The position numbers and the translations under genes are program-made. From positions 2,480,001 to 2,544,000 of the forward strand of contig CP114117.1 of assembly GCA_029959195.1 (NCBI GenBank): a stretch of DNA of 64,000 bases, in the 5' to 3' direction. The stretch comes from Dictyophora rubrovolvata (Eukaryota > Basidiomycota > Agaricomycetes > Phallales > Phallaceae). Positions 35,714 to 57,398 of the stretch are shown piece by piece (within the stretch, counting starts at the first letter, position 1; every line of letters starts with the position of its first letter). The notes beneath the pieces are model-generated. The model saw nothing but the letters and a program-made list of their open reading frames with translations, was not told where the DNA came from and searched no databases.

Positions 35714-38344
35714 ATGGACCCCGAAGCCATGTATCCAGCAATGAACGTACAGTACGTCAAAAAAAAACACACCATCCAAAAGTATAGTAACCTGTTATTT
35801 CTCTCCAGCTCGTTCCTATTCTCGAATCCATTCCACGACTCTCCAGCAAACAAGCACTACAACCTCCCATCGCTTCCCAAAACTCCGGACTCCCGCATCT
35901 ACTGCGAAGACCCCTACGCCCACCTCTCCCTCTCCTTCTCCCGCCTCCGCTCCGAATCACTTCGTCTCGCCCAAGGAATACACGACACCTTCGGCCAACC
36001 AACATACCACACCTCATTCGGCTCAACCTCTGTCTCCGGCCCAGTCGTTCTCATCCAACTCCCCAACTCCGCCGTCCTCCCAGTTCTCATTTCGGGTTTT
36101 CTCGCAGCGGGGTGGGCAGTATCCACTGCTAATCCCGCCAATACTGCCACTGAGCTTGCTCATTTTATTGAGCTCTGTCAGCCTCGCGTTGTGATCACTC
36201 AGCCTGGTGCACTTGGCGAGAAAGCCGTTTCGGAAGCGTGTCGGATCGCTAAATGTGACGATGATGGCGTTGAGATTTTTGTCGTCGATGTTAATAGCGA
36301 TTGGAAGGATGTTCCGTTGATGAATGGTAACGGTGTGGAGAAGGACGGCAAGAAGTACGGTAGGTTCTGGACTGTACTTTTGGCCGATAAGGAATTTGTT
36401 GTCCCGCCCATGGTAAGTCTGAACCGACAGTTTTTGGGATTACAACGCGATTTTCACGATGATTGGAATAGACTGTGGAAGAAGCCAATACCAGAATTGC
36501 ATTCATTTTGTGGACATCAGGTAGGGAATTCCGACTCGTTACCCTAAATATATATCTCATACAACTTTATTACAGGAACCACCGGAAAATCCAAAGGCGC
36601 AATGCTAAGCCACCGAGCTATCATTACCGGTACTGTACTCGTCAGAGCCTCCAATCCTAAATTCTTGGAACATGAGGTTAATCTGAGTTCTCTATCTTTC
36701 CTCCATTCTACTGTGTCTGATGTTTGATCATGAACTAGAAATGGATCGGGCTTGCACCACACACGCACGTATACGCTTTATTCAACCAAATTCTGATCGT
36801 ATGTTCCTATAATAACTTCGAACGTATTCCTTTCTGATCCCCTTTTCACCCAGGGAATTCCAATCGGCGCAACAATAGTCGTCCAACGAAAGGTCCGTAT
36901 GCCCCCCCCAAAAAAGGAAATTAAACCCCTCATCTCATGTTTGAAACAACAGTTTGACGTCAAACAATACCTCTCCAACGTTGCTCGTCATAAGATCACG
37001 TTACTGCATATAATACCCCCTATAGCCGTAGCCATCTCCAGCACCGATCTAGTGCACCAACCCGAATACAGCTTATCAAGCGTCAAAGGGATTATATCTG
37101 CTGGTGCTCCCATTCCTCCTGACTTAGTCAGGAGAGTACGAGATTTAACGGGTGTAATTATAAAGTCAATGTAAGTGTCCCCGAGAGCTGACCTGATTTT
37201 TTTGTCTAAAATTTTGGGGGTAGATATGGTATGACGGAGTTAGGCCCAATAACATATGTTAAAGATCAGACCTGGGAAGAACTTCAGGGCAGTTTGGGAA
37301 GTGCAGGTTTGCCCATTCCTCCCGTTGAAATCAGCATCGTACCCATGGATGGACTGAATTCAGCTGAAACCGGTAAGAAGTGATTTATCACATCCTTCAT
37401 GTTCACGCGCGCAAATACTCAAACCCCAAACCCTCTCTTCTTTTCTTCTTTTCTTCACAGCGAGTGGAGAAATAGTTGTACGATCTCCTTCCGTGATGTT
37501 GGGATACATTAAGAATCCTGAAGCCACGAAGGAAATGCTCCGCTCTGATGGAGCTCGTACCGGTGATCTCGGGTATTTGGACGAGAAAGGGTACTTGCAA
37601 AGTGCGTGTGTGTGATTGCTGATTTTCAATTACTATTCACTAATTTCTTGCGCCCAATTTTTTTTTTTTAAAAAGTTACTGGGAGATTGAAGGAGCTTGT
37701 TAAGGTGCGGGTTTTTTTTTTATATGTTGATATAGAAATTGATTTCAAATTATTCTTTTTATAGTACAAAGGGTACGTGCATATTCAACTCAACTCGATA
37801 TTTCTCACACCGACACCACCTCAGATACCAAGTCTCCCCTACAGAGCTGGAAGCCATAATCTCGGACATACCCGAAATCAAAGATGTGGCGGTAGGATCG
37901 ATCTACTCTGAGTCACAAGCAACAGAATTACCTATGGCATACGTCGTCCCGCTAACAAATGATCTTCTTCGTATTGTATCAGCTAACGCACGATCGCAAG
38001 CTGAAGGACGTGCGCTCGTCGCGGGCAACAAAGGAGTGGGCGGAGTATACACTCACACGCCCTCTTCTTTACTCCCGCTCGAGTCTCTCGCCGAAAAGAT
38101 CGAGAGACTTGTCGAAGAGAAATGCATCTATTATAAGCGGCTCAGGGGTGGAATCATGTTTGTTCCCGAGTTGCCCAAATCTCCCAGGTGCGTGCGTGAT
38201 TGTTTAAACAAATTAAAGTCCTTCAAGGGGTTTTGAACCATCAATTGATAATCACTCCGCAGTGGGAAAGTCGTCCGTTTGGCGTTGAAGGATTTGCAGG
38301 GTGTGTTTGTAGACGGCTATACAAACAGGCAAGCTAAACTATAA
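35714..38344 (+). CDS. AMP-forming acyl-CoA ligase (4-coumarate-CoA ligase-like), ACS1, with AKL end
   Basis: Exons: 35714-35751, 35809-36412, 36472-36520, 36576-36676, 36739-36798, 36854-36892, 36953-37170, 37224-37372, 37461-37601, 37676-37704, 37765-37772, 37825-38187, 38263-38344. Motifs in ANL-superfamily order: [20 protein letters not shown] (P-loop), [44 protein letters not shown] and [12 protein letters not shown] with the catalytic Lys. The enzyme adenylates a carboxylic acid and transfers it to CoA; the substrate is unknown. Exon 11 is only 8 nt and completes the invariant KYKG. The protein ends NRQAKL, a canonical peroxisomal PTS1. A GC-AG intron (38329-38414) would instead skip this end and add 61 residues, mostly Gln-rich, to a stop at 38598. 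Confidence 0.88.
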
Positions 38345-38532
38345 TTAATTTAAATGAGCCACATAGAGTAAACTTTTATTTTTTATTATTATTGTTGTTG
38401 TTGTTATATTACAGTAAACGCCAACGACAACAGCTACTACAGGAACGACAACAACAACTACAGGAACAACAACAGCTCCAACAGCGGCAGCGGCGTAACT
38501 CGCACCCGTCAAGCTGGCCCAACCTATCCAAA

Positions 38533-40330
38533 CTACCCCCAAAAGTTGCCCCAGCTTGTCAAGTTGTCATCGAGATCAACGATGTTCTTGTTGGATGAAG
38601 GAAGAGCGGGCAAACCTTTCATTACAGTCGTTTTGAAAACCATGTACGTCGTCGTTCCACCTCTATCGAAACGTAAAAGAGAACGTTTACCTTCTATAGA
38701 GCCCGTCGTGTATTTCAAAGTTGGGATTTGTGTTACGAGTTGGTGGATGAGTTTCTTTGCTATGGGTTGTCCCACGTCGAGGTCGTCGAAGAGGGAGAGG
38801 AGTTGTGTGAGGGGTGGGGAGTGGGACAAAAGGACTTTTACGGTGTTTTCAATCTGGGCAGATTATATAGGTTGTATTATATTGAATTAAAAGGGAATTA
38901 ATATTATTTTTAGAGGCGGGGCTGCGGGCTTAAATATTAATGACTCACCCAAGAAAGCAATTGCATTCCCTCGCCAAGGAGTTCTATCCTCAACTTTGTG
39001 ATCTTCGGTGCGCTCCGCAGCACGGTTTCGATATATTTGGCCTGGCTCATGTGCATGACCAGAGTGCAGCTGTCGAGGTTCGACATTGCTGAAATAGCTT
39101 GTACAATATTCCCGTGGAAGCGCGTTGAAAAGTGGGTGAGCTGGCGGGTGAGAGAGGCCGGGAGGTGGAGGGGGACAAGTTCATGTCCGTGCGTTTCGGG
39201 GCTAGTTTGCAACACTCGGACATTGGGGCACAGGCCCTCCTCTGTTGGAAAACACGTGGCTAGTTGAGTCCATACCGGGAGATACAGGTGTTCAAGAGAA
39301 GGGTGACGTTTGAGAAATGAGGTGAAGAACGTGCGTTTGCCAGAGTCCGTGCGCAGGTCGTCCAAGTCTATAGCATTCAAGTCTAATGTGTCCTCCTCGG
39401 TGGCAGGGTTGAAAAAAAGTTCTACTTGGCTGCCCAGCTCGAGGTGGCGCAGGTTCGGCCATGTACTGTGTTCGAGGGTTCTGAAGATGTTGACCGGGAG
39501 GTGGAGCGCTAGGTTTGTTAGATTTGGTGTACGTAAAATCAGCATCGCTGTGATGTCGGTGAAGTTTCGGGTAGGCAGGGTCGAGCGTATGATTAAATGT
39601 GTGAGGTGAGTGTAGTCCAGATCCAGGAACTGATATAATGAGGGTGGATCGATGAGCATGTACTAAAAGCTTAACTCACAAGAGATGTTGGAAGCTCTTG
39701 ATACGGGTCATGTCGGTTGACGTTGTACACAACCGTCATTTTTTTGAGAACAGGTTGGGTCGCCACGAGTCCCTCGACGATTTGGTTTAGATACTTGTCA
39801 GAACACAACTGGACTTCAAAGGACACAAGATTAGGCAGATATTGTATCGTATTCAACGCGTTTTGAATATGATCACTGGTGGAAACACTGTCGCTGTGAG
39901 CACTCTGCCTCAATTCATGCGTTTTGGGAACGCTCCATGTTATTTTACACGCTTTGGGTACACGGATTATCTTGCAGTTATTTCTGATCGCCCTATCTGC
40001 TTTGTTCCATCGCTGTTCGAGTTCGTAGATCGGGCTGGTTGATCTAGAGTCAATGTAACGTGAAGATGATTCGAAAAGGGACAGATTCGCGACGAGTTGT
40101 TTAGTTGAAGAAAGCAGAGATGGGCCGGACAAATGTTCCCAAACATCTTGATATCCACGCGGATCGTTGAGAGTGCAGGATATGGAAAGGTACTCTATGT
40201 ACGGTCTGACAATATCGTGCAAGAGGCGTGTTGTAAGTGCGAAACTGAGCAGGTCAGCGTAGTCTTCGATGTAGAAAGCTATTTGACAGATAAGTTCTGT
40301 TGGGAGAGATATCAGGGTTGACATGGACAT
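38533..40330 (-). CDS. F-box protein with Leu-rich C-terminal half
   Basis: Exon 1 starts at 40330 (MSMSTLISLPTELICQIAFY, an F-box opening) and ends near 39680 (QELPTSL). A 50 nt intron leads to exon 2 (FLDLDYTHLTHLIIRSTL...), which ends near 38950 (GEGMQLLSW). An intron of about 90 nt leads to exon 3 (IENTVKVLLSHSPPLTQLL) and the stop at 38533. The C-terminal part has repeated Leu-rich segments typical of substrate-binding regions. It is a second, unrelated-looking F-box gene beside the one at 956-2341. It lies tail-to-tail with ACS1 and would overlap the long form of that gene by 66 nt. Confidence 0.8.
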
Positions 40331-40681: not shown

Positions 40682-42980
40682 TCAAAGCTTTCCTTTCGGT
40701 CCGGCGGAGAACGACTCCTTCTTTGCCAATTCTCTCAGGTCTTTCCGCAAGATCTTCCCAGCAGCACTGCCAAAATAAATAAATAAAAATCAACACACAT
40801 AACTACACTTGTTCCCACCTTTTGGGTATAGCATCTATAACAACAACCCCACCACGAAGATATTTATGTCGCGCTACCTTACTTTGAATCCAGGTCTGAA
40901 CTTGTTTGCCAAAAGCTTCTTTATCCGCTTGTGTTTTCAGAGATGCTGCCCCTTCGCGTGGAACGACATACGCGCTAGAGTATGCACAAAATTAAAAATA
41001 AGCTTGAAGGGAGATTTCGTCATTCAAGTTTAAAAGACTTACCGAGGGAGTTCAGTTGCTTCTACATCCGAGTATATGCCAATTACCCCCGCATCCAAAA
41101 CATTCGGGTGCGTAAGGAGTAGGCCTTCTAATTCGGCAGGAGATACTAAACATAATTGTTAGTTTTAGGCATTGCTCAAAAAAATATATATTAAATATGT
41201 ACTAGCCTTGAAATCCCTGCATAAAGAATAATTGCCAGATGTTGTCAAACACTATTTATGTATGTATTGACTAACCTTGTATTTTATCAACTCTTTCATC
41301 CGATCAACGATGAAGAAATATCCATCCTTATCGACATATGCCGTATCTCCAGTCTTAAACCACCTATCTGGGGTTATAGCTTCGCGGGTGGCTTTCGGGT
41401 CATTTAGATACCCCTATCATGCATACATAACCAGAACATACAATTCAAAAAACAACGCTCAACGCTCTTGAGGGAACCATACCTTCATCAAATTAGGACC
41501 CCTAAACCACATCTCCCCTTCTTCACCCACTGCTGCGTCACTTCCATCCTCCAACACAATGCGGGCTTCCATATTGGAAAGCAGAGCGCCGATGCTTCCA
41601 GCTCGAGTCAGCCATTCTTCCGCTTTAAGTATTGCGCAAGCTGGGCTAGTTTCGGTTAGCCCCCACGCTATGATGAGAACTTTAATTCTCCAAAAGAAGA
41701 AGAAGAAAAAAAAGCAAAGATTTTCACCTTGGGTGATTTGAACATGTACTCCTTGCTTTTTCAAGCGTGCGCTAGCCGCTAGTATGAGGTCTTTACCGAG
41801 AGGTGCCGCAGCAGAAATTAAGACTTCCAGACTTTTTAGATTATATTTTTCTACGACTATGTCATGAAAAAGAGCTGTCAGTTTACTGGCAATATGATTT
41901 TGCAATGATTGATTGGGTTTATCCTTACCCGGGTGGTTTGCAAGAACAATCAACATTGGTGGAACGACAGAAATGACAGTCACTTTATACCGTTCTATAT
42001 TGGCGCAGAAATCTTCGGGAGTGAACTGTGACATTATGAATAGAGGGCATGAAACCACGATGGGTAGCAGAATTCCCGCTACCAAACCGTAGATATGGAA
42101 CTAGGAAATAATATTGGCATTCCGGCAAAAGGAATCCAACGAACAAAGGAGCGAAAAAACCCACGAATGGTAAGACTGCTATGACACGTTTATTTATATT
42201 GACATAGCCAGATCTATGTCTAATGCCGATAAGAACTCCTACAATGTTAAAATGCGTCAACTGGGTAGAGTTAAAATTATACAAAGCCCACAGAGAAAAT
42301 CATCACAGACCTCTACACCTTTAGATCTCGACGTTGTTCCAGAGGAATAACATAGTAATATCGTCTCGTGGGCGGCTTCGCCATTGAACGGTTCTTCCTT
42401 CTCTAACTGTCCGTTGCCGAGGAAGTCATCAAGACGGCGCCACTGTCCCTTGATGCCAGTAAAGGATGCGGAAGCCCCAACGAGGATGATGCGCTTTTTT
42501 ATTTCAGGTTCATCCGCTTTTGTGATTTTCAATGCTTCTATTGCAGTTTCTAACAAGTGTGGATGGACGAAAATGTAATACGCTCCGCTATCCTAGAAAA
42601 ATCATCAGCCCGTGTTGAGAAAACTGATTCAAGTCCCTTACCTGCAATTGGTATAACAACTCGGAAGGAGTATACATACTATTAACAGTGGTAATACGAA
42701 CACCAGCTGCAATCGCGCCCAACAGCACAATAGGCCAAAGAACGGAATTCATAGAAAAGAAAGCGATAGTGTCTCCCCGTTTCAAAGACAAAGTGTTTCT
42801 GAGAGACCACCCCAGTTGTAAAGCCGACGTTCTAACATCATTTCTTGTGAATTTTTGACCTGTAGCAGCGTCGGTGAGAGCTAAATTCTTGGGATCAAAT
42901 TCTCCGGAGAATATGTAGGAAAAAATTGAACACTGAGGCGGGTCGACTTTCGGGTCTGTTGAACGATAGATTCGCACCAT
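40682..42980 (-). CDS. AMP-forming acyl-CoA ligase ACS2
   Basis: Exon 1 (42980-42642, 339 nt, [17 protein letters not shown]...) has exactly the length of exon 1 in ACS3. Motifs: [16 protein letters not shown] (P-loop), [36 protein letters not shown] + GFQ + VSPAELE and [20 protein letters not shown] with the catalytic Lys. The class activates aromatic or medium/long carboxylic acids to CoA esters. The GFQ exon is 10 nt (41207-41216 on the minus strand) and is followed by a GC donor (AAG|GCTAGT). The C-terminus ends PKGKL, near the PTS1 pattern but not canonical. It is a close paralogue of ACS3. Intermediate exon ends were not all fixed. Confidence 0.88.
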
Positions 42981-53402: not shown

Positions 53403-53511
53403 AGTAAAGCTCGGAGGAGACGCGTTAAGTCACGCGTCACGAGTTACGAATATATGTATGTCACACGACAGTCATGCGACAGTAACTCATGCCACGGGAG
53501 TTAATTCAGGA

Positions 53512-54074
53512 ATGCTTCTTTCTCATCCCTTGAATTTTGGTAAATGGCTTTCAGAAAAATCCGATCTACTGAAACCTCCGGTAAACAATTTCTGTCTTTA
53601 CTCTGGTGATGACTTCATCATTATGGCCGTTGGCGGCCCAAACGAACGGACTGGGGTGACCATGTTTTTTCAAAACTTTCTGTGAGGAATTCAACCCCAA
53701 ATACAGGAATGGTTCTACCAACACAAGGGCGAAATACTTTTACGCGTGGTCGATGGCGAAGAGTTCAGGGATATTCGTATCAACGAGGGAGACATGCTTT
53801 TGCTTCCTGGTGCGTGCTGATACGATTGGGATTGTAGTGGAACGTAAACGTCCTGCTACATCAATAGGTTCGTTTCCGCCGTCTATAACTTTTCCTCCTT
53901 AAATAATACATCAATGTGCATGATAGATAGATTAAGATGGTATTGTCGGTCAGGAAAGCACAAGACACCCGTCATAATCTGCGAGGAGGCTTCCATTGTG
54001 AGGATCTGGGCACGCAGCTCAAGCCCTTGATCAATAATTGGATCAGCAACAGAAATGTAGTCAATGTGGAGTGA
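53512..54074 (+). pseudogene. 3-hydroxyanthranilate 3,4-dioxygenase pseudogene
   Basis: The start matches the enzyme well: [39 protein letters not shown], then [20 protein letters not shown] and EGDMLLLPG. The cupin fold normally binds Fe(II) through two His and one Glu. The segment after NERT that should carry the first His is frame-shifted. The PHNPVRF segment after LLLPG, with the second His, is missing, and reading resumes at [18 protein letters not shown] last exon (DRLRWYCRSGKHKTPVIICE) is frame-shifted before a family-like end FHCEDLGTQLKPLINNWI. With at least three lesions the copy should be inactive. The functional enzyme belongs to the kynurenine route to NAD. Confidence 0.8.
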
Positions 54075-54432
54075 TAGCTGACGCTAAGTAGGGATATTAT
54101 GTAGTATGTATCATTGTAAGTCTTTCTTTTCGTTATGCGTTGTCCATGGACCATACCAGAATCTAAACCATTAGAGATCGTTTTTCAAGCTGTTGCAATA
54201 TTAGATTTTCACACTCCTGTCCTCTATTTTGTTATCCACTTCAACTTAATATCCTGCGAACTCAAGACAGCCAAGTCTGTGTTGTCTGTCTGCCTAGGAT
54301 TGGTTTGACAAAAGGCGTTTTTTCTATTAGTGGACCGGATCTCGGAACCGTCACGGTCAGCAGTCGCCGGTCACCTGACCACGACTTGAGGATATTTCTC
54401 TCACTTCTTCAACAGAAACTCACTAAAGCCAA

Positions 54433-56696
54433 ATGGTCCGTATTTATCGTTCAACAGATCCCCAGGTTGGCATTCCGCGACGTTCCATCTATACCCACGT
54501 CTTTTCTGAAGGATATGACCTAAAGAAACCAGCGTATATTGACGCAGCCACAGGTCAAGCGTTGACAAGGAAGGATGTTCGAGATCTCACCCTACAATTT
54601 GCCTGGTCTATCAGACATACCTTGTCACAAAAACGCGGCGATACTATGGCTTTGTTCTCCATGAACTCGATTGTGTGGCCTTTAGTCCTGCTGGGGGGTA
54701 TTGCAGCCGGTCTTCGCGTTACCACGATCAATAGCTCGTATACCCCTACAGAATTACTGCATCAATTACAGGTGAAGCCACTGTGATTGCATGTCACCGG
54801 TAGTTAGAAATGATCTTCTTTCAGGACAGTGGCGCCTATTATATTTTTACCCATCCGAGTCTATTGAATAATGCCGTGGAGACTCTCAAATTGATGAAAG
54901 TGAATGATGTTGATATCAGAAAGCGTATCATTCTCGCTGGACCTCCCTCTTCGTATTCTGGCATTGAAAAAGGCTGGCTTCACTTTGCTGAGCTTCTCGG
55001 TAAAGGGCAGCTTGAAAAGGAAGAACCGTTTGATGACGAAGCTACGAACGAAACTGTCCTTCTGTGTTACTCGTCCGGAACAACATCCAAGTCGAAGGGC
55101 GTAGAGGTTTGAATTAGATTTCAATCACTTGGAGTTGTCAAAATTGATCCGGTTCACATTACAGTTAACACACCGTAACGTTATGGGGGTTATGTGTGGA
55201 GTCAGACATAGATTCAAATATGTCAACGCACATGGAGCCGTTATGCTTAGCGTTTTACCCTTTGTAAGTTTGACTCTGAGCCCAAGTACTGTATTAATGA
55301 AAGTTTGAATTGATAGTATCATATCTACGGCTTGGTAAAACTTGTCCTTGTGCCCTTTTTATCTGGATGTCCGCAAGTAATTATGTCACATTTCAATCCC
55401 GAAGATTTTTGCGCAAACATAGAACGATATAAAGTGACTGTTGCTCTCATCGTTCCGCCAATTTTAGTTGTTCTTGCAAATCATCCTGGTAAGGGAAATT
55501 GCTTAAAGCTAAGCAATCAACAGTTTAAATTATATTTCTGAATAGCACCCGACAAATATGATATGCGATCTTTGAAAATCCTTTTTTCCGGTGCAGCACC
55601 TCTGAAGAAGGATCTTATTCTGGCAGTTAGGGCCCGTATGGAGAAACAAGGCACAGATATCCGATTCCCTCAAGGTGGTTATATTCGTCTTGTACCCAGT
55701 GATTATTGACTTCAAAAATTCATTGTGTAGGGTGGGGACTTACTGAGACCAGCCCGACTTGCACGATGCAAATGCCCGAAGATTGGCTCCTGAAGGCGGG
55801 AAGTATTGGTGGACTACTAGCCAATGTTGAAGCTCGAATCGTTTTAGAGGATGGAACCGATGCACCTGAGGGTGAAGCGGGGGAGATATGGATCAGAGGT
55901 CCTATTGTTATGAAGGTATGCTGATTTGTATCGTGGATTTCCGAAGTGACCTGCAAGTTTTGCTTTTTGATGCATAGGGATACCTGAACAATCCGTCTGC
56001 TACTCGTGAAGCCATCACACCGGACGGGTGGTTCAAAACAGGGGATGTAGCAATCGTAGACAACGATGGCTATTTCACTATTGTTGACAGAAAAAAAGAG
56101 CTGATAAAATATAAGGTACGGTTAATATTCGTGCATCAGTAAAATATCAAATCATGACCAGTGCTTGTTTCCAGGGATTCCAAGGTAAAATGACAGTCTC
56201 TTTTCTTTTTCTGTGAAGATTGAAAGAGGAACGTTTCAGTTCCTCCCGCGGACTTGGAAGGTATACTCCTAACCCACCCTAAAATTGTGGACGCAGGCGT
56301 TATCGGTGTATGGTCAGACAAAGAAGCCACTGAGTTTCCCCGGTAGGACTTTCGACGATAATCATGAAACTCTCGGACTCATCAACCTGTTTCAGTGCAT
56401 ACGTCGTTCCAAGAGGTGGCATAGCGTCCTTGAAGACGTCAGCCGAAAAAGAGGCGTTCGGTCGTGAAGTGCAGAGCTGGATTCAAGACAAGGTGGCACG
56501 ACATAAATATCTTCGCGGTGGAGTCGTTGTAGTAGATTCAATACCTAAAAGGTTTGTGGGATAATCGTTTTTTCAGAATTTTACACCGTTTTTCTCATTT
56601 TACTTTTGAAGTTTGGCGGGAAAGATTTTACGGAAGGAGTTAAGAGAGTTGGTTAAAAAAGAATTGCAAGTTACTGGCTCGAGGGTGAAACTATGA
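54433..56696 (+). CDS. AMP-forming acyl-CoA ligase ACS3
   Basis: Eleven exons, all joined in frame: 54433-54771, 54825-55106, 55165-55263, 55317-55488, 55546-55674, 55731-55915, 55978-56115, 56174-56183, 56240-56342, 56396-56551, 56612-56696 (565 aa). Motifs: [16 protein letters not shown] (P-loop), [55 protein letters not shown] + GFQ, and [17 protein letters not shown] with the catalytic Lys. It converts an unknown carboxylic acid to its CoA ester. Exon 8 (GGATTCCAAG) is 10 nt. The protein ends SRVKL, a weak PTS1-like end. The N-terminus [10 protein letters not shown] matches ACS2, so the two are duplicates lying in opposite orientation. Confidence 0.93.
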
Positions 56697-57398
56697 AGAA
56701 AGGCATGACATCCATAGTAGAAGATTACGATTCACACATTATATCTTAAGGCATAGTTCACACAAAGTCTCCAATCGTTCATGACGAACACCACTTGTGC
56801 CACTAGATTATGTATATCCGTTTCCAGAATGCTTGAGGTTGGACTTGAAGGTCCCTACCATTGCATCCTAACTTAATACGTGTCAGAAACCACAAATATG
56901 GTTTACAGTCAAGAGCCCATCCAGTGTGAGAATGATGAATATGACCCCTCAAGCTGCAAATGTTAATGGTGATCGCAAGTAACCTTTAGAACGATCCGGA
57001 CTTGTTGCATAAATTCCCGTTATCCGAATCAACTCAAATTTTTGAAGGGAAAAATTAATTATAACCATTATCTATTATCCGCTCAGCAAAGAGAACAGAC
57101 TATTCTTGGCAACAGGCTGGTCCTGAATTGGCCATCTGGATAGATGCGGGAGGCTTGGTATAGCTTTTCACATCACAATCATCTAATTGCCATAAAATTG
57201 TTTTTTTCGATATTCATTTCACAGCTACACGATATGAACTATTTACTTAATTAATACAAATTTGCAACTTGAGCTGCAACGAAACGCCTCCGGCCTAAAC
57301 GGCCCCAAGGAAGCACTACTGAAGAAGGCAAACTGAACTAAACCAAAAGAAACACAGGTACAGCATATATTGCACAAATTCGACCAAAGCAAAATTGA
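56697..57398. other. convergent intergenic gap
   Basis: This 700 bp AT-rich stretch between the 3' ends of ACS3 and LHP1 contains no recognised gene. Confidence 0.45.

What the first reader, a model, noticed from the sequence alone, without database searches (positions are those of the whole stretch)
35714..38598. Possible splice switch between a peroxisomal and a Gln-rich end in ligase ACS1
The unspliced reading ends NRQAKL, and AKL is a canonical PTS1. The base before it lies in ACAG|GCAAGC, the classic context of a GC donor, and an acceptor (TATTACAG) at 38414 joins in frame to a 61-residue Gln-rich tail ending at 38598. Splicing would remove AKL. Switching of peroxisomal targeting by alternative splicing is documented for glycolytic enzymes in fungi such as Ustilago maydis. 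That both forms are made here is inference.
Basis: partly seen in the sequence, partly recalled or inferred. Interest (0 to 1): 0.75.

Follow-up and report, generated by a model that had tools for sequence, protein, structure and literature searches.

The report
Ordinary peroxisomal ligase; splice switch doubtful
A mushroom CoA ligase gene ends, like its sister genes, in a normal peroxisome address tag; the proposed alternative glutamine-rich ending reads repeat DNA and the back of a neighbouring gene, so a real switch is unlikely but not excluded.

Summary
The letters are as described. ACS1 (35714-38344, +) is a 4CL-like CoA ligase of 626 aa ending in AKL. CAG|GCAAGC at 38329 and TTACAG at 38414 join in frame to 61 residues ending at 38598. 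AKL is the family's own kind of end: five other ligase genes of this genome end GKL, VKL, AKL, PKL and AKL, 20-26 residues after the conserved Lys; one readable end differed (VEQ). The tail looks non-coding: its Gln part is a 21-nt repeat in three copies, its last 66 nt are antisense to the coding end of a convergent F-box-like gene, and no relative was found in the genome. Against my reading, the splice sites are respectable: the acceptor is strong, the GC pair scores inside the range of 24 hand-modelled introns, and such a GC case is rare in a control (1 of 5,410). But a stronger GT donor at 38301 competes for the same acceptor and gives a different, mostly antisense tail. No RNA reads were available. 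Chromosome lengths point to Dictyophora rubrovolvata. Verdict: ordinary PTS1 ligase; selected switch about 7%.

The parts
35714..38344 (+). ACS1, 4CL-like acyl-CoA ligase: 13 exons, 12 GT-AG introns of 52-88 nt (hand model), 626 aa
   Evidence: Exon joining; Pfam AMP-binding 3.6e-62 and AMP-binding_C 1.7e-7; best solved relative 4-coumarate--CoA ligase 2, 4.5e-62
38263..38344 (+). Last exon: Gly-Lys segment and C-terminal AKL, stop TAA 38342-38344
   Evidence: aligned with five paralogue ends
38333..38341 (+). AKL codons (canonical PTS1)
   Evidence: consensus [SAC][KRM][LM] as printed in PMC8140964
38329..38414 (+). Proposed GC-AG intron, 86 nt (hypothetical; no evidence of use)
   Evidence: Donor 1.7 bits (24 modelled donors 2.3-10.2), 6.4 without the +2 base (modelled 3.0-9.0); acceptor 7.9 (modelled -0.6 to 8.7); branch site weak. 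Sum 9.6; modelled sums 3.6-17.6
38301..38414 (+). Competing candidate GT-AG intron, 114 nt, same acceptor, stronger donor AGG|GTGTGT (hypothetical)
   Evidence: Sum 15.8, opens 157 codons in another frame; longer than any of the 24 modelled introns (50-95 nt)
38415..38598 (+). Proposed Gln-rich tail (probably non-coding)
   Evidence: 21-nt repeat x3 at 38423-38484; only itself found in own genome; no Pfam family over its cut-off
38533..40330 (-). Convergent F-box-like gene, 3 exons, 550 aa; its coding end overlaps the last 66 nt of the proposed tail in antisense
   Evidence: Exon joining; Pfam F-box-like 0.0025, 18.0 bits, below the cut-off of 24.3
40682..42980 (-). ACS2, paralogue ending PKGKL
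   Evidence: Start and stop read; C-terminus; not fully modelled
54433..56696 (+). ACS3, paralogue ending SRVKL, 10 GT-AG introns (hand model)
   Evidence: Exon joining

Best explanation
ACS1 is an ordinary 4CL-like acyl/aryl-CoA ligase whose normal protein ends in the PTS1 tripeptide AKL and is imported into peroxisomes (import is inferred from the tag and the family, not shown). The CAG|GCAAGC word comes from the codons for Arg-Gln-Ala just before the stop. The downstream acceptor and open frame lie in a T-rich and CAA/CAG-repeat stretch between two convergent genes and in the antisense of the F-box-like gene's last codons. Little or no transcript is spliced there and no functional tail isoform is made.
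For: Five paralogue C-termini end -KL, 20-26 residues after the conserved Lys. The tail is a three-copy 21-nt repeat plus antisense F-box-like codons, with no relative found in the genome. Open tails of 61 or more codons occur at 9-14% of positions, and with lax donors 3 of 6 ligase gene ends show extensions of 50 or more codons. The same acceptor has a stronger GT donor that gives a different tail of 157 codons running over the antisense of the F-box-like exon, so open tails are cheap here. All 24 hand-modelled introns are GT-AG (partly by construction, as GT was sought).
Against: The splice signals are better than at the five paralogue ends (best sums 8.7, 6.1, 4.0, 1.5, 1.0 against 9.6 for the GC pair and 15.8 for the GT pair). 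In the reversed window 1 of 5,410 positions has a GC pair of this score with 50 or more codons and 0 of 5,410 reach 15.8 with 50 or more codons. The GC donor word is rare (3 in 128,000; 0 of 91 and 0 of 350 frame ends). GC-AG introns do occur in mushrooms (1.85% in Ganoderma lingzhi, PMC11590231). Codon bias did not separate tail from coding sequence. The F-box call is below Pfam's cut-off.
Confidence: 0.7

Rival explanations
1. The acceptor at 38414 is used at a low level, from the GC donor 38329 or more likely from the GT donor 38301, as splicing noise in the 3' region with no selected function for the resulting proteins.
For: Strong acceptor after a T-rich tract; GT pair sum 15.8, GC pair 9.6, modelled introns 3.6-17.6; GC-AG introns exist in mushrooms (PMC11590231).
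Against: GC at +2; GT version 114 nt, longer than any of 24 modelled introns; weak branch site, although 14 of 24 modelled introns also lack a full YTRAY.
Confidence: 0.22
2. Regulated alternative splicing swaps the AKL peroxisomal end for a Gln-rich, non-peroxisomal end, giving two locations for one ligase.
For: In-frame junction that replaces RQAKL; plausible splice sites; known fungal cases of splicing-controlled PTS1 (PMC3798809).
Against: Tail is repeat plus antisense coding sequence with no relative found; competing stronger GT donor; precedent of opposite polarity in U. maydis.
Confidence: 0.07
3. The spliced form is the main one and AKL is a retained-intron artefact.
For: Only the presence of the splice words.
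Against: The AKL end matches the ends of five paralogues.
Confidence: 0.01

Closest known systems
Fungal hydroxycinnamate/fatty acyl-CoA ligases with PTS1, e.g. HcsA of Aspergillus niger (PTS1 AKL) and FatB of A. nidulans (PMC8140964, passages)
   Same: CoA ligase with a C-terminal PTS1; HcsA has the same tripeptide AKL
   Different: That paper found no HcsA homologue in most basidiomycetes it analysed; ACS1 was not compared with HcsA by sequence here
Plant 4-coumarate--CoA ligases and beetle luciferases
   Same: Related by sequence, E down to 4.5e-62
   Different: ACS1 has extra residues between query positions 521 and 569 that the 4CL alignment skips; substrate untested
GAPDH of Ustilago maydis and PGK of A. 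nidulans, PTS1 by alternative splicing (PMC3798809 section 5)
   Same: C-terminus decided by splicing would be the same kind of control
   Different: In U. maydis the alternatively spliced form is the extended peroxisomal one; here splicing would remove the signal, and there is no RNA evidence
Malate dehydrogenase of Yarrowia lipolytica (PMC3798809 section 5)
   Same: Two splice forms of which only one has a working PTS1
   Different: Intron size differs by four nucleotides there; here a whole intron would be kept or removed

Membership tests
Adenylate-forming 4CL-like ligase (AMP-binding PF00501 / AMP-binding_C PF13193) | Pfam domain scores over the curated cut-off | tested here: met
   210.8 bits (cut-off 29.9) and 32.5 bits (cut-off 24.5)
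Adenylate-forming 4CL-like ligase (AMP-binding PF00501 / AMP-binding_C PF13193) | C-terminal PKSPSGK lysine segment | tested here: met
   Present and aligned with 4CL and paralogues; its catalytic role is recalled
PTS1 peroxisomal protein | C-terminal [SAC][KRM][LM] | tested here: met
   AKL; consensus as printed in PMC8140964
PTS1 peroxisomal protein | Import into peroxisomes via Pex5 | not testable with these tools
   Needs microscopy or fractionation
Splicing-controlled PTS1 enzymes (U. maydis GAPDH type) | Both transcript forms exist | not testable with these tools
   No RNA reads held; SRR23948425 is named in PMC10411574
Splicing-controlled PTS1 enzymes (U. maydis GAPDH type) | Alternative C-terminus conserved in related genes | tested here: inconclusive
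   Paralogues of the same genome only. No relative of the tail found. At five paralogue ends the best donor-acceptor sum is 8.7 (ACS3, AGG|GTGAAA over its VKL codons, 39-codon extension) and 6.1 or less in the other four.

The most novel reading that the evidence does not exclude
A young acceptor born from a repeat in the 3' region, fed by a GC donor at 38329 or a GT donor at 38301, lets the mushroom replace AKL by a new tail and so keep part of a peroxisomal CoA ligase outside the peroxisome, the reverse of the known U. maydis case, with the tail overlapping an antisense F-box-like coding end.
Probability: 0.07. Interest if true: 0.5.

Novelty: new member of a known kind. Interest (0 to 1): 0.15.

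Why it matters
If the switch were real it would show a removable PTS1 on a dedicated peroxisomal enzyme and a recently born C-terminus. As it stands the locus mainly documents -KL ends, canonical AKL in three of six genes, in 4CL-like and related ligases of a stinkhorn mushroom.

Tried and rejected
Codon-bias test: trained on ACS1, ACS3 and F-box exons 1-2, it scored the tail -0.08 (about the median of 341 open 61-codon ends) and F-box exon 3 +0.17 on its own strand, but ACS1 (+0.07), ACS3 (+0.01), F-box exons 1-2 (-0.04) and the last ACS1 exon (-0.20), scored without themselves in training, were hardly better or worse, so the test does not discriminate and I do not lean on it.

Branch-site test: the candidate has only a 4-of-5 match (TAAAC, 42 nt from the end), but 14 of 24 modelled introns also lack a full YTRAY; inconclusive.

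RNA hairpin around the acceptor: a TTG/CAA stem encloses the acceptor, but the fold is not better than shuffles (z -1.03, 29 of 200 as good); rejected as evidence.

GT-donor control (16 of 91 frame ends with donor, acceptor and 50 or more codons) is contaminated by real exon ends and was not used; on the reversed window replaced it. In the window as it stands one search gave 213 of 5,410 (any donor), 2 of 5,410 (GC) and 8 of 5,410 (15.8 or more), real introns and this locus not excluded.

F-box exon 3 has one weak possible relative in the genome (E 0.085), not significant; its coding status rests on the open frame, the fitting GT-AG introns and the F-box-like N-terminus, itself under Pfam's cut-off.

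The tail search in the genome scored one candidate only, the tail itself, so weak or low-complexity relatives could be missed.

Paper searches for PTS1/AKL coumarate-CoA ligase in fungi, splicing-controlled acyl-CoA synthetase, and PTS1 basidiomycete adenylate-forming ligase returned 0 papers each; these were narrow word searches and show no absence in print. The bacterial-type promoter/terminator scan does not apply to a fungus. I did not scan viral contigs or genome contigs: by their descriptions they hold viral, bacterial and archaeal sequence.

Full report
What is there. ACS1 starts at 35714 and, after removal of 12 GT-AG introns of 52-88 nt, encodes 626 aa ending NRQAKL, stop TAA at 38342-38344. 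Pfam finds AMP-binding (3.6e-62) and AMP-binding_C (1.7e-7); the best solved relatives are plant 4-coumarate--CoA ligases (4.5e-62), followed by luciferases.

Where it comes from. The held genome G000 has 28,239,528 bases in 11 contigs. Contigs C2, C5, C6 and C9 have exactly the lengths printed for chromosomes 2, 5, 6 and 9 of Dictyophora rubrovolvata (3,149,261; 2,754,995; 2,711,256; 1,936,385). C1 and C3 are longer than the printed figures by 100 and 200 bases, C4 and C8 shorter by about 1.1 and 1.2 kb; C7, C10 and C11 were not compared, as no locus from them was listed. I take the window to be chromosome 1 of this stinkhorn (order Phallales). This is an inference from lengths, not from a named record.

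The AKL end is the family's own kind of end. I scanned the middle part of 20 loci (the 19 plus L003) for a Gly/Ser/Ala-Lys segment running to a stop. Five gave -KL ends: ACS1 itself (L035), L027 (PKAKL; the best-scoring other gene, 30% identical over 353 positions), L037 (= ACS2, PKGKL), L022 (RPKL) and L024 (SKAKL). One readable end differed (L021, KVEQ). L019 appears to run into an intron. Other hits in L021, L024, L026 and L032 were in other frames or places and are taken as noise; the remaining loci gave nothing by this crude motif. ACS3 in the window, modelled by hand, ends SRVKL. An alignment of six ends, with L021 and L019 left out, has Gly, Lys and the final Lys-Leu invariant; since -KL ends were what I chose, the invariance of KL is partly by selection. 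Three of the six are canonical AKL; GKL, PKL and VKL fall outside the consensus [SAC][KRM][LM] printed in PMC8140964 (passages). The same paper lists PTS1 AKL for the CoA ligase HcsA of Aspergillus niger. So peroxisomal targeting of ACS1 by AKL is the plain reading; import itself was not shown.

The tail does not look like coding sequence. Of its 61 residues 15 are Gln (counted by eye), 14 of them in the first 28, which come largely from three copies of a 21-nt unit at 38423-38484 (second and third copies 90% and 81% identical to the first). Its last 66 nt (38533-38598) are antisense to the last codons of a convergent gene, 40330-38533, 550 aa in three exons, with an F-box-like N-terminus at E 0.0025, under Pfam's cut-off. 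AATAAA words on that gene's strand lie at 38375-38380 and 38382-38387 (78 in the window against 62 expected, so weak evidence), so the proposed tail would sit in that gene's 3' UTR and coding end. Only the tail itself was found in the genome at E up to 10, and no Pfam match passed a cut-off (one sub-threshold hit at E 0.62).

How surprising is the arrangement? An acceptor 45-120 nt downstream with an open frame of 61 or more codons: 1,582 (CAG) or 2,495 (CAG or TAG) of 17,800 sampled positions, real coding sequence included. With any GT or GC in the last 42 nt as donor, 3 of 6 ligase gene ends (ACS1, L027, L024) reach extensions of 50 or more codons. The donor is the rare part: AGGCAAG 3 times in 128,000 positions, and 0 of 91 (0 of 350 for frames of 60 or more codons) frame ends have AGGC[AG]AG in their last 30 nt. 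By my arithmetic from these figures and the 9,725 genes of PMC10411574, about 7 genes of the genome would carry such a word in their last 30 nt by chance and 0.6 to 1 would also have the tail; for this window of about 19 genes the same sum is 0.1-0.2% (for 19 genes and 0.013). So the case is unremarkable per genome but a small-chance event per window, softened by the many kinds of oddity a reader may pick.

Splice-site strength, told against my reading. With a matrix from 24 hand-modelled introns the GC pair sums to 9.6 bits (modelled introns 3.6-17.6). Its acceptor alone has 7.9 (modelled -0.6 to 8.7); its donor has 1.7, below all 24 modelled donors (2.3-10.2) because of the C at +2, and mid-range without that base. 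At the five paralogue ends the best sums are 8.7 (ACS3), 6.1 (L027), 4.0 (L024), 1.5 (L022) and 1.0 (ACS2). In the reversed window any donor with this sum and 50 or more codons occurs at 143 of 5,410 positions, a GC donor at 1 of 5,410. One search showed a better partner for the acceptor: AGG|GTGTGT at 38301, sum 15.8 (0 of 5,410 reversed positions reach this with 50 or more codons), a 114-nt intron that opens 157 codons in another frame, across the antisense of the F-box-like exon. If 38414 is used at all, the GT donor is the likelier partner, and the product would be an Asn-rich tail (read), not the Gln-rich one. It would also lose AKL.

What is known of GC-AG introns: 1.85% of introns in Ganoderma lingzhi, where overlapping transcripts in opposite directions are also common (PMC11590231, abstract and other passages). 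A passage of PMC7072748 gives 98.7% for fungi, which I read as the GT-AG share (the start of the sentence was not shown). All 24 introns modelled in ACS1 (12), ACS3 (10) and the F-box-like gene (2) are GT-AG, partly because I looked for GT.

The precedent. A review (PMC3798809, section 5 read) says that U. maydis makes a C-terminally extended peroxisomal GAPDH from an alternatively spliced transcript, that A. nidulans makes its peroxisomal PGK by differential splicing, and that Yarrowia malate dehydrogenase has two splice forms of which one has a working PTS1. In U. maydis GAPDH splicing provides the signal; the proposed case would remove it.

Odds. In the checking round I lowered the best explanation from 0.80 to 0.70, raised splicing noise from 0.14 to 0.22 and the selected switch from 0.05 to 0.07, because searches showed stronger splice signals at this gene end than I had allowed for.

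Verdict. Observation correct; the AKL end is a real and ordinary PTS1; a selected switch is unlikely, some noise splicing is possible, and RNA-seq data named in the genome paper could settle it.

Noticed in passing
38301-38414 (+): A GT donor (AGG|GTGTGT) stronger than the proposed GC donor pairs with the same acceptor and opens 157 codons in another frame, mostly antisense to the F-box-like exon.
   Followed up: partly
40682-42980 (-) and 54433-56696 (+): Two further 4CL-like ligase genes (ACS2, ACS3), both starting [10 protein letters not shown], lie in the same 64 kb as ACS1 and end GKL and VKL, near-PTS1 variants outside the strict consensus.
   Followed up: partly
56685-56756 (+), end of ACS3: A GT donor-like word (AGG|GTGAAA) lies over the VKL codons of ACS3 with an acceptor 72 nt on and a 39-codon extension, a weaker look-alike of the ACS1 arrangement.
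   Followed up: partly
ACS1 protein residues about 522-568 (within 37825-38187): Extra residues in the C-terminal domain that the alignment to plant 4CL skips; by eye ACS3 has a shorter stretch there.
   Followed up: no
53500-54080 (+): Reading frames recall a cupin-type 3-hydroxyanthranilate 3,4-dioxygenase just upstream of ACS3 (recalled from the letters, not searched).
   Followed up: no
G000 C8:2067592-2080670 (L004, L005, L007, L008, L026, L028-L030): Four AMP-binding matches in tandem, each with an AMP-binding_C match, within about 13 kb elsewhere in the genome.
   Followed up: no
38392-38474: A TTG run and a CAA run face each other around the proposed acceptor and can pair as RNA, but the region does not fold better than shuffled sequence.
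   Followed up: yes
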